A stretch of DNA of 47,545 bases, from contig QCHI01000011.1 in NCBI GenBank assembly GCA_003279655.1, positions 1 through 47,545 on the forward strand, written 5' to 3'. This DNA comes from Prochlorococcus sp. AG-402-A21. GTDB lineage: Bacteria > Cyanobacteriota > Cyanobacteriia > PCC-6307 > Cyanobiaceae. The first letter of the stretch is position 1; every line of letters starts with the position of its first letter. Positions 5,250-11,853 of the stretch are shown piece after piece. A program made the translations under genes and the position numbers. The notes below the pieces were generated by a model. The model worked only from the letters and a program-made list of their open reading frames with translations, searched no databases and had not been told where the DNA came from.

Positions 5250-5738
5250 ATGTCCGTTGATTCGAAAGAACCCTCAGCAGAAGAGGTAAAAGTTGAAAAT
5301 GAATCAAATGCTTCAGAGGAGTCTGAAGTAAAAATTGCTTCTGATACAAAATCTAAAGGGAAGAAAATTCCAATTAAAAATCTCTCTCCTGCAGAAATCA
5401 TAAAGACTTTTGAAGACACACAACTAAGCAAAAATCTTCCCGATATCTACGTTGGGGATACTGTTCGTGTTGGTGTCCGAATAAGTGAGGGTAATAAGGA
5501 GAGGGTTCAGCCCTACGAGGGTGTTGTAATAGCAAAGAGACATGGAGGAATTAATCAAACAATCACAGTAAGGAGAATTTTCCAAGGAATTGGAGTTGAA
5601 AGAGTTTTTCTGGTTCACAGTCCACAAGTTGCATCCATTAAGGTTGAACGCCGAGGTAAAGTAAGAAGAGCGAAGCTTTTCTATCTGCGTGAGCGAGTGG
5701 GCAAAGCCACGCGCGTAAAGCAGCGCTTCGACCGCTGA
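5250..5738 (+). CDS. rplS: 50S ribosomal protein L19
   Basis: 163 residues from ATG 5250; TTG and GTG codons immediately upstream give a longer frame but ATG is preferred. The conserved core starts near residue 46 ([12 protein letters not shown]) and contains [30 protein letters not shown] and the terminal [15 protein letters not shown], all diagnostic of L19. L19 sits at the 30S-50S interface. The first 45 residues are an acidic, Glu/Ser-rich extension not found in E. coli L19 (115 aa). The gene heads a translation cluster followed 60 bp later by tRNA-Trp. The 3' end is clearly richer in G+C than the extension. Confidence 0.97.
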
Positions 5739-5782: not shown

Positions 5783-5798
5783 AAAGGGTATATCAAAT

Positions 5799-5871
5799 GC
5801 GCCGTTAGTTCAGTTGGTAGAACGCAGGTCTCCAAAACCTGATGTCGGGGGTTCAAGTCCTCCACGGCGCG
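5799..5871 (+). tRNA. trnW: tRNA-Trp (anticodon CCA)
   Basis: 73-nt cloverleaf. The 7-bp acceptor stem GCGCCGT pairs with ACGGCGC at 5864-5870, with discriminator G at 5871. The D-arm contains AGTTCAGTTGGTAGAAC. The anticodon arm is CAGGT-CTCCAAA-ACCTG with CCA in the loop, and the T-arm is GGGGG-TTCAAGT-CCTCC. The terminal CCA is not encoded. The G discriminator is normal for Trp. Confidence 0.97.
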
Positions 5872-5906
5872 TTCGAAAACCCTTTCTGCAGTTACTTATT
5901 TAAAGA

Positions 5907-6095
5907 ATGGAGTTGGATCTTCAACCTGGCGATGTCGTAAAAGTTCTCGAGTCAGCCGCATTAGGCTGGGTCAGGGCTCGAGTTATTCGTGTAAAATCAG
6001 GTGGCCGTGTAGTAGTACAAAGCGACCAAGGCCGCGAGTTCACAGCTCGTGGGAATCAAGTTAGGCTTATTGAACCCGCAGGTTTCCGTCCTTAA
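5907..6095 (+). CDS. Picocyanobacterial hyper-conserved protein (PSHCP-type), 62 aa
   Basis: 62 residues, ATG 5907, starting MELDLQPGDVVKVLES and ending RLIEPAGFRP. The alternating short hydrophobic strands (GDVVKVL, WVRARVIRV, GGRVVVQS, EFTARGNQVRLIE) and Gly turns suggest a small SH3-like beta barrel; there are no Cys, signal peptide or membrane span. From memory, marine Synechococcus and Prochlorococcus share a 62-residue protein identical in all genomes, lacking homologues elsewhere, SH3-like, and pulled down with ribosomal protein L2, PsaD and a Ycf48-like factor; length, fold pattern and context fit. By my count 96 of 189 bases are G or C, far above the flanks. The gene lies between tRNA-Trp and tRNA-Asp, pointing to a translation-linked role. 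The identification rests on recall and should be confirmed by alignment. Confidence 0.85.
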   Translation: MELDLQPGDVVKVLESAALGWVRARVIRVKSGGRVVVQSDQGREFTARGNQVRLIEPAGFRP

Positions 6096-6280: not shown

Positions 6281-6294
6281 AAGACCTAAAAACT

Positions 6295-6368
6295 GGGACC
6301 GTAGTTCAACTGGTTAGAGCACCGCCCTGTCACGGCGGAAGTTGCGGGTTCGAATCCCGTCGGTCCCG
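6295..6368 (+). tRNA. trnD: tRNA-Asp (anticodon GTC)
   Basis: 74-nt cloverleaf. Acceptor GGGACCG pairs with CGGTCCC (6361-6367), discriminator G at 6368. The D-arm is AGTTCAACTGGTTAGAGC. The anticodon arm is CCGCC-CTGTCAC-GGCGG with GTC, and the T-arm is GCGGG-TTCGAAT-CCCGT. CCA is not encoded. The gltX start lies only 21 bases downstream, so the two are likely co-transcribed. Confidence 0.97.
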
Positions 6369-6389
6369 TATCTTAATCGAATTAAAGTT

Positions 6390-7820
6390 TTGACAGTTAG
6401 GGTAAGATTGGCACCAAGTCCAACTGGAACACTTCATCTAGGAACAGCGAGAACAGCATTATTTAACTGGCTATTTGCAAAAAAAGAAGGTGGAAGTTTT
6501 CTCTTAAGAATTGAAGATACGGATACTGAAAGATCAAAAGAAGAGTATCTAAAAAACATATATGATGGTCTCCAATGGCTGGGAATTAACTGGGATGAAT
6601 CCCCGATAATTCAAAGTGAAAGAATAAATGAACATAAACAAATTATAAAAACTCTGCTTGATAAAGGATTGGCATACAAGTGTTATGCATCAGAAGCTGA
6701 GCTAGATGAAATGAGAGAAACGCAAAAGAGAAATGGTTTAGCACCAAAATATGACAATAGGCACAGAAACTTAACTCCAGAGCAAGAATCAGAATTTATA
6801 AAGATTGGAAGAGAACCTGTTATCAGATTCAAAATCAGTGATGAGAGATTGATTTCATGGACTGACTTGATTCGAGGAAAAATGACTTGGAGTGGAAAAG
6901 ATTTAGGAGGTGATATGGTCATTGCAAGAAGAGCATCAGCAAATTCAATTGGTGACCCCTTATACAATTTAGTTGTTGTAGCAGATGATTCAGCGATGAA
7001 AATTTCCCATGTAATAAGGGGAGAAGATCATATTGCAAATACAGCAAAGCAAATTCTTCTTTACGAAGCTCTTGATCTAAATATTCCCGTTTTCGCTCAT
7101 ACTCCTTTAATTCTTAATTCTGAAGGTAAAAAACTCTCAAAAAGGGATGGGGTGACTTCAATTTCTGAATTCAAAAAAATGGGATACACCTCTGAGGCGA
7201 TGGCAAATTACATGACTCTTCTTGGCTGGTCTGTTCCAGAAGGAATTAATGAAAGATTCAAAATTTCAGAAATTTCAACAATCTTCAGTTTTAAAAAGGT
7301 GAATAAAGCTTCAGCAAAATTTGACTGGGACAAATTGAACTGGCTCAATTCACAAATAATTCATGAAATGCCAGCTGAAACTCTATTAGAAAATTTAGAT
7401 CCTTTATTTAAAGAAAATGGATGGCATCTTCCAAGTCAAGAATGGGGAATCCATCTAGTAGGTTTAATTGGACCATCCATGATTCTTATTAATGATGGAG
7501 TTGATCAAGCTAAACCTTTTTTTGAAGAACCAGAATTAAGTAATGATGGCAAAAAGCAATTAAAAATTAAAGAAGCAGCAGTAATTTTGAAGTTTATTCT
7601 TGAAAAATTGGAAAACTCAGATTCTGCATTCATTTCTAAAGAGGCAGCGCTTGATTTGATTAATCAAGCTACAAAAAACTGCGAAGTAAAAAAAGGTCTT
7701 GTTATGAAAAGTCTTAGAGCTGCCCTCTTTGGAACTCTTAATGGGCCTGATTTAATTCAAAGTTGGGTTTTACTCTCAAGATTCAGGAAAGATAGAGACC
7801 GAATTAGACGGTTTATCTAG
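6390..7820 (+). CDS. gltX: Glutamate--tRNA ligase
   Basis: 476 residues from a TTG start at 6390 ([17 protein letters not shown]). Upstream in-frame codons lie inside tRNA-Asp and cannot be coding, so TTG is the only sensible start. It has the class I signatures: [10 protein letters not shown] (HIGH-type) at the N-terminus and KKLSKRDG (KMSKS-type) near residue 250, with the all-helical anticodon-binding domain after it. Length fits bacterial GluRS. In cyanobacteria one GluRS usually charges both tRNA-Glu and tRNA-Gln (followed by GatCAB amidation) and also supplies Glu-tRNA for chlorophyll and heme synthesis. The last 45 bases overlap the convergent antiporter gene. Confidence 0.96.
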
Positions 7821-11114: not shown

Positions 11115-11672
11115 ATGAGTCGTCTTTTATCAATTCTATTATCAGCATTTCTTTTTTTAGGAATAGCTCCAATAGCTAATGCAAGACCAGGACCAGCACT
11201 AAACGCTGATAGAGCTTCTACAGATTTCACTGCTTCCGCTTTGGTATCTTGCGCTGATAATCCTCGTTTCCAAGAGAGAGCAAGCACCGCCTCCACAGAT
11301 CAGGCAATAAAAAGATTTGAAAGATACAGCAAAGCCTTATGCGGAGATGATGGTCTTCCTCATTTAATAATTGGTCCGCCTATTGAGCCTTGGGGTGCAT
11401 GGATCAACCGAGGTCATGAAGGAGATCTACTTATCCCTGGAGTAATGTTTATCTATATTGCCGGTATTATTGGTTGGTCAGGCAGAGAGTATGTAAGAGC
11501 TGTTAGAGGCAAAAAGAACGCTGCAGAATACGAAATTATTATCGATACCTCTTTAGCTTGGCAATGTTTAAAAAGAGGAGCTGCCTGGCCACTTCAAGCT
11601 AATAGAGAAGGTAAAAATGGAGGGCTTAGAGAAAAAGACAATAATGTTTCTCTCAATGGTCCAAGAGGCTAA
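11115..11672 (+). CDS. psaF: Photosystem I subunit III (plastocyanin/cytochrome c6 docking protein)
   Basis: 185 residues. An N-terminal signal peptide (hydrophobic residues about 4-18, cleavage expected after ANA at residue 23) sends the N-domain to the lumen. The lumenal part carries the two Cys expected for the PsaF disulfide (SCADNPRF and ALCGDDGLPH). GDLLIPGVMFIYIAGIIGWSGREY forms the membrane segment, and the C-terminal stretch continues beyond the usual SLAWQCLKRGAAWPLQA with a polar tail. PsaF helps dock the soluble electron donor to P700. It is followed 43 bp later by psaJ, the usual psaFJ operon. Confidence 0.97.
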   Translation: MSRLLSILLSAFLFLGIAPIANARPGPALNADRASTDFTASALVSCADNPRFQERASTASTDQAIKRFERYSKALCGDDGLPHLIIGPPIEPWGAWINRGHEGDLLIPGVMFIYIAGIIGWSGREYVRAVRGKKNAAEYEIIIDTSLAWQCLKRGAAWPLQANREGKNGGLREKDNNVSLNGPRG

Positions 11673-11715
11673 ATAAAGTTTTATCAATTCCTAAAACACC
11701 TTTTTTACTTTAATC

Positions 11716-11853
11716 ATGTTTCAATTATTTCGCACTAAATGGTTTAGATCAGCCCCAGTGGTTGCAACAATTTGGATCGCACTAACAGCAGGTATTATTG
11801 TTGAATTTAATAGATTCGTACCAGACTTACTTTTTCACCCAATGTCTTTTTAA
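11716..11853 (+). CDS. psaJ: Photosystem I subunit IX
   Basis: 45 residues starting [20 protein letters not shown] and ending LLFHPMSF. It has one transmembrane helix with the acidic residue and E-F-N-R-F motif characteristic of PsaJ, whose helix coordinates chlorophyll and packs against PsaF. The position directly behind psaF (43-bp gap, same strand) confirms it. A strong terminator for the pair begins 41 bases after the stop, inside the gmk gene on the other strand. Confidence 0.96.

What the first reader, a model, noticed from the sequence alone, without database searches (positions are those of the whole stretch)
5907..6095. Hyper-conserved 62-residue protein set between two tRNA genes
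Sequence: a 62-residue, beta-rich, Cys-free protein, with about half G+C (96 of 189 bases by my count) amid A/T-rich flanks, placed rplS - tRNA-Trp - this gene - tRNA-Asp - gltX. Knowledge (from memory): a 62-residue protein identical across Prochlorococcus and marine Synechococcus, absent elsewhere, SH3-like, associated with ribosomal protein L2, PsaD and a Ycf48-like factor. Inference: a ribosome-linked factor, perhaps coupling translation to photosystem assembly. Total amino-acid identity over such divergence is extraordinary for an unassigned function.
Basis: partly seen in the sequence, partly recalled or inferred. Interest (0 to 1): 0.75.

Follow-up and report, generated by a model that had tools for sequence, protein, structure and literature searches.

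The report
Known hyper-conserved picocyanobacterial tRNA-binding protein
This is the gene for PSHCP, a 62-residue protein already described and structurally solved, which nearly all picocyanobacteria keep letter for letter; it probably helps translation by binding tRNA, but its exact job is still open.

Summary
Window 5907-6095 (+) encodes a 62-residue Cys-free protein in the order rplS - tRNA-Trp - ORF - tRNA-Asp - gltX. It is the published PSHCP: residues 1-56 equal PDB 6nnb. So it is already known. In Cyanobiaceae 363 of 400 genomes match, 247 of 251 good ones; of 19 misses re-searched, the four good ones included, 14 also lack rplS and 5 have it cut at a contig end. Outside the family no relative stood up among about 300 genomes of the class. 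Selection is on the protein: 81 genes for the same 62 residues are 81 different sequences. It is more fixed than PsaC in 25 genomes. 'Identical' is slightly too strong: 26 of 29 deviants re-examined have real changes, 14 only at the ends. Best reading: a lineage-specific Tudor-fold, tRNA-binding translation accessory factor; tRNA binding is recalled from a 2019 paper not held. New here: the gene sits at a break of an rplS-trnW-nusG cluster, and a GGAG overlapping its AUG gives way to an upstream Shine-Dalgarno in one clade.

The parts
5907..6095 (+). pshcp: 62-residue PSHCP, single Tudor/SH3-like barrel (strands 10-15, 20-29, 34-39, 44-48, 52-56 in the model)
   Evidence: (56/56 to 6nnb)
5907..5924 (+). 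codons 1-6: start region under nucleotide-level constraint; codon 2 GAG and codon 4 GAT in 79 of 81 loci, so that GGAG overlaps the AUG; no Shine-Dalgarno-like word at -20 to -4 in 79 of 81
5798..5872 (+). tRNA-Trp (CCA), 34 bases before the ATG; spacing 32-46 bases in the 79 of 81 loci where it is seen, the other two begin within 86 bases upstream
6294..6369 (+). tRNA-Asp (GTC); distance to pshcp 111-1178 bases in the 78 of 81 loci where it is seen, the other three end within 681 bases
5250..5738 (+). rplS (ribosomal protein bL19), 162 residues
6390..7820 (+). gltX (glutamyl-tRNA synthetase); start at the in-frame TTG 6390 is inferred, the mechanical ORF begins at 6342 inside tRNA-Asp
   Evidence: name from the sequence and PMC4215834

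Best explanation
The ORF is PSHCP, a basic one-domain Tudor-fold protein that binds structured RNA, mainly tRNA, through an Arg/Lys patch, and works as a lineage-specific accessory factor of translation, most likely where tRNA meets the ribosome. Shown here: identity to PSHCP, fold match, near-fixed protein sequence with free synonymous change, presence throughout Cyanobiaceae, fixed place among translation genes. Published: the solved structure, expression, the L2 pull-down; tRNA binding as recalled from the 2019 paper. Inferred: action at the ribosome, and that near-total fixation comes from a small domain whose whole surface touches conserved RNA or ribosomal partners.
For: Identity to 6nnb (titled 'Tudor domain of PSHCP'). 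Fold model mean pLDDT 85.7; Tudor chains head the second look at Z about 9. 8 Arg, 2 Lys, computed pI 10.7. 81 distinct genes, one protein; gene G+C follows locus G+C, r 0.96. Present in 247 of 251 good family genomes, misses tied to the assembly. More fixed than PsaC or bL11. In the 2014 text: L2 in pull-downs from three strains; transcription changing in parallel with translation genes under nitrogen and phosphorus limitation. The 2019 title states an RNA-binding function.
Against: No experiment here shows tRNA or ribosome binding. The same pull-down also gave PsaD and a Ycf48-like protein, which a pure translation role does not explain. The bait was a basic His-tagged protein and no nuclease step is described in the part read, so RNA bridging is possible (inference). 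Long transcripts holding both rplS and pshcp are under 2% of the pool, so the operon argument is weak. Of the five fold models only the best three exceed 75 pLDDT, and 6nnb itself ranks only 45th, Z 8.1, in the second look. Pfam lists SH3_1 just below its cut-off and no Tudor family.
Confidence: 0.6

Rival explanations
1. PSHCP links the ribosome to photosystem assembly, holding translating ribosomes near PsaD and the Ycf48-like factor (the 2014 proposal).
For: PsaD and Ycf48-like peptides in pull-downs from three strains, few or none in controls; repeated in a passage of a 2016 review (PMC4823308). psaF- and psaJ-like ORFs lie 3.3 kb after gltX in this window; whether that is conserved was not tested.
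Against: One to four unique peptides each; the conserved neighbours rplS, two tRNA genes and gltX are translation genes; no reciprocal test seen in the parts read.
Confidence: 0.15
2. PSHCP is a tRNA maturation or storage chaperone, made from the same transcripts as its flanking tRNAs.
For: tRNA-Trp lies 32-46 bases upstream in 79 of 81 loci; transcripts that run through tRNA-Trp or start inside it are published; tRNA binding recalled.
Against: Distance to tRNA-Asp varies tenfold; 8-26 fmol per microgram protein is probably far below the tRNA pool (inference).
Confidence: 0.15
3. PSHCP is a relic of the KOW domain of NusG, left when secE-nusG moved away from rplS-trnW.
For: nusG follows rplS and tRNA-Trp in 14 of 18 outgroup loci; both folds are SH3-like; archaeal Spt5 is the second Foldseek row.
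Against: Profile comparison gives probability 0.14%, 19 of 200 shuffled sequences reach the score and the reversed sequence scores higher; no KOW family in the Pfam list.
Confidence: 0.03

Closest known systems
PSHCP of Prochlorococcus/marine Synechococcus (PDB 6nnb; Whidden et al. 2014; Bauer et al. 2019)
   Same: Residues 1-56 identical to the solved chain, same length and gene order as in the 2014 text
   Different: Nothing found that differs; it is the same protein
Eukaryotic Tudor domains such as TDRD3, PHF1, SMN
   Same: Barrel fold, Z 7.9-9.5 over 50-59 residues for the rows of these three
   Different: Sequence identity 12-26% in those rows; one Trp and two Phe in all, no Tyr, so no canonical aromatic cage (cage recalled)
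KOW domains (NusG/Spt5, MutS2)
   Same: Similar small barrel, Z 8.1-8.4
   Different: No sequence support against cyanobacterial NusG KOW

Membership tests
PSHCP | 62 residues, near-identical sequence | tested here: met
   56 of 56 aligned residues to 6nnb, E 2.4e-31; 62 residues
PSHCP | gene order rplS - tRNA-Trp - pshcp - tRNA-Asp - gltX | tested here: met
   window. Flanking tRNAs elsewhere: Trp in 79 and Asp in 78 of 81 loci
PSHCP | restricted to picocyanobacteria | tested here: met
   97 of 388 class genomes match at E <= 0.1: 88 in the family (E below 5e-35), 9 outside (E 0.007-0.1 per genome, no more than chance gives); two of the 9 checked lie antisense to another ORF, 5 run through stops
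Tudor domain | five-stranded SH3-like barrel of the Tudor type | tested here: met
   five strands; 6nnb titled Tudor domain of PSHCP; Tudor chains on top
Tudor domain | Tudor sequence profile | tested here: inconclusive
   Pfam scan lists SH3_1 (22.0 bits, cut-off 22.9), Myosin_N and Agenet below cut-off, no Tudor family; HMMER filters drop weak matches
Tudor methyl-ligand readers | aromatic cage of three to four aromatic side chains | tested here: not met
   only W21, F45 and F60 in 62 residues, no Tyr; F60 lies outside the strands of the model; cage definition recalled
NusG/Spt5 KOW domain | KOW sequence profile | tested here: not met
   hhalign probability 0.14% against 38 cyanobacterial NusG C-terminal ends; 19 of 200 shuffles reach the score
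Ribosomal protein | stoichiometric place in the assembled ribosome | not testable with these tools
   needs gradients or cryo-EM
tRNA-binding protein | binds tRNA | not testable with these tools
   recalled from Bauer et al. 2019, not held

The most novel reading that the evidence does not exclude
In the ancestor of Cyanobiaceae an orphan Tudor-fold gene was set into the break of an old translation cluster (rplS-trnW | secE-nusG) and became an obligatory, practically unchangeable part of that lineage's translation apparatus. Its mRNA start is itself unusual: GGAG overlaps the AUG and is kept against A/T pressure in the loci seen without an upstream Shine-Dalgarno, save five, and it is lost where one has appeared; it may be an initiation signal inside the gene, or a site by which the RNA-binding product controls its own synthesis.
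Probability: 0.2. Interest if true: 0.65.

Novelty: already known. Interest (0 to 1): 0.35.

Why it matters
A protein more fixed than PsaC across a family that dominates ocean photosynthesis should touch something that cannot change. If it is a lineage-specific part of the translation machine, it would show how a core machine takes in a new obligatory part. The list of tolerated changes and the start-region swap given here make direct tests possible. As a discovery, though, the gene, its conservation, its partners and its structure are in print.

Tried and rejected
Homologues outside the family: of the nine weak class hits two (L082, L083, one genus) were followed and are antisense to a hydrolase-like ORF; five of the nine run through stops. 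L084 and L085 were fetched but not analysed. Viral contigs: 34 pattern stretches, none a relative. Phage records: three places at E 7-8, none over 80% of the query. NCBIfam: one chance row, E 0.2.

NusG KOW origin: not supported. Conserved RNA structure in the 34-base spacer plus first 20 codons: none in 74 sequences; 70 of 100 column shuffles fold at least as well. Rfam in the window: the two tRNAs only, at gathering thresholds. Overlapping gene as cause of the conservation: no other ORF of 45 or more residues overlaps 5907-6095, and synonymous sites vary.

Literature: 'PSHCP' as a whole word is in 2 papers of the library. Bauer et al. 2019 is not held (one search finds only a paper that cites it), so all beyond its title is recalled. 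No claim is made that the start-region swap or the gene-order break is absent from print; no search was made for them.

Script errors: misread loci on the minus strand and was replaced; mis-set one locus (L128) and missed an N in L126, mended. A NusG pattern found outgroup proteins only; one search replaced it.

Full report
1. Observation. The ORF at 5907-6095 (+) is as described: 62 residues, no Cys, 96 G+C of 189. ARAGORN and Rfam both find tRNA-Trp at about 5798-5872 and tRNA-Asp at about 6294-6369. rplS ends at 5738 and gltX at 7820. The flank claim is half right: the 200 bases downstream are 27% G+C, the 200 upstream, with the tRNA, 49%.

2. Identity. A sequence search of the PDB gives 6nnb, 'Prochlorococcus/Synechococcus Hyper Conserved Protein', 56 of 56 aligned residues, E 2.4e-31. 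Whidden et al. 2014 (PMC4215834; text parts 1-4 of 6 read) give the same length, gene order and composition, expression in three strains, 8-26 fmol per microgram protein, and L2, PsaD and Ycf48-like protein in pull-downs. Bauer et al. 2019 I know from its reference entry and from recall: NMR Tudor domain, tRNA bound far better than DNA, patch around Lys30.

3. Distribution. In the family 363 of 400 genomes match at E <= 0.001, 247 of 251 with at least 90% completeness and at most 5% contamination, 53 of 59 genera. Of the 37 misses I re-searched 19 with rplS, the four good ones among them: 14 of 19 lack rplS too; in the other 5 rplS or a piece of it ends within 192 bases of a contig end, too little room for pshcp. 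That the 14 are assembly gaps is an inference. The other 18 misses were not re-searched; each is listed at under 90% completeness. In the class 388 genomes were searched: 97 match at E <= 0.1, 88 in the family at E below 5e-35 and 9 outside at 0.007 or more. No 'same order' genome appears among the 116.

4. How conserved. I re-examined 29 of the 34 (which also held G002 for its two copies); the 5 left are all of genus g9. One of the 29 has only an N, two are cut by a contig end, 26 have real changes: 14 only at residues 1-3 or 61-62, 12 inside (V10L with L19M in 5 genomes of genus g9 that start at codon 3; V13A in two; K12R, R25S, R43S, L54M, I55N once each). Some single cases come from fragmentary assemblies and may be errors. 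Control in the same 25 genomes: PSHCP is identical in 21, has an N in one and differs in three; PsaC is 94-100% identical to the query genome's, at 100% in 2 of 25, the query genome being one of them. bL11 in 23 other genomes is 79-94% identical to the window genome's, 93 of 141 columns invariant over 24.

5. Cause. The 81 loci with the exact protein (80 and the window's own) hold 81 distinct genes, differing at a median 40 of 186 bases; gene and locus G+C correlate at 0.96. These loci were picked for protein identity, so they show synonymous freedom, not the rate of amino-acid change. No formal dN/dS was computed. This is purifying selection on the protein, as the 2014 paper says.

6. Start region. 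Codon 2 is GAG in 79 of 81 against 27, 22 and 30 of 81 at the three other Glu codons; in the 32 A/T-rich genes 32 against 6, 4 and 7. Codon 4 is GAT in 79 of 81 against 52 and 35 at the other two Asp codons. Mean codon diversity is 0.28 for codons 2-6 and 0.61 for 7-62 without Trp. Over 109 loci (the 81 and 28) the start reads ATGGAG in 95, and none of these 95 has GGAG, GAGG, AGGA or AAGG at -20 to -4; it reads ATGGAA in 7, and all 7 have such a word, 4-8 bases from the ATG; it reads ATGGAT in 7, of which 2 have one. So the in-gene GGAG and an upstream Shine-Dalgarno exclude each other, but the 5 with neither (genus g9 and G054) are exceptions, and the loci are not independent: in a bL19 tree of 103 of the 109 the ATGGAA rows present form one supported clade, with one further Shine-Dalgarno row elsewhere on a long branch, so one or two events; the Fisher value printed is not to be used. 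Controls: bL11 also has lower diversity at its invariant early codons (0.31 over three codons against 0.52, 24 genomes), so part may be ordinary, while gltX near its start in 55 loci does not. No conserved fold was found.

7. Locus history. In 18 outgroup loci tRNA-Trp follows rplS on the same strand in 17 and nusG follows in 14 (the best-scoring loci, not a random set). A SecE-like ORF between was read in one (L109; name recalled). In the 12 Cyanobiaceae loci tRNA-Trp and tRNA-Asp follow rplS and nusG is not found; in the window's genome NusG is on contig C2. So pshcp sits where the cluster is broken in this family. That the outgroup order is ancestral is inferred. The origin of the gene stays open; NusG KOW is not supported.

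8. Mechanism. The model agrees with 6nnb (TM 0.74-0.78, rmsd 2.4). Tudor chains lead the second look, but 6nnb itself ranks 45th there and middling Z values are common; a fold shows no function. Too few aromatics for a cage argue against a methyl-reader role; the basic composition and the 2019 title argue for RNA. Translation neighbours, the L2 pull-down and expression trends point to translation. I put 0.6 on a tRNA-binding translation accessory factor, 0.15 on the photosystem link, 0.15 on tRNA maturation or storage.

9. Verdict. Interest 0.35, for an open function with sharper tests rather than for discovery.

Noticed in passing
window 5887-5918: GGAG overlapping the ATG (codon 2 GAG) occurs in 95 of 109 loci, all without a Shine-Dalgarno-like word upstream; the 7 loci with GAA at codon 2 all have one.
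   Followed up: partly
L078 (CALPNT020000095.1): A record titled Bifidobacterium breve MAG carries the identical PSHCP gene between tRNA-Trp and tRNA-Asp, and its bL19 groups with Synechococcus sp. UW140: a mislabelled or contaminated bin.
   Followed up: yes
L140-L144, L136: In genus g9 (5 of 5 examined) and in G049 the protein starts at codon 3 (ATG), two residues shorter.
   Followed up: partly
19 of the 81 loci; also L118, L125: A two-residue C-terminal extension QK.
   Followed up: no
L105, L108, L114, L115: Outgroup loci in which nusG was not found in the 1.5 kb held after rplS: other breaks of the cluster, or too little sequence.
   Followed up: no
window 11115-11853: psaF-like and psaJ-like ORFs lie 3.3 kb after the end of gltX (names recalled from the sequence).
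   Followed up: no
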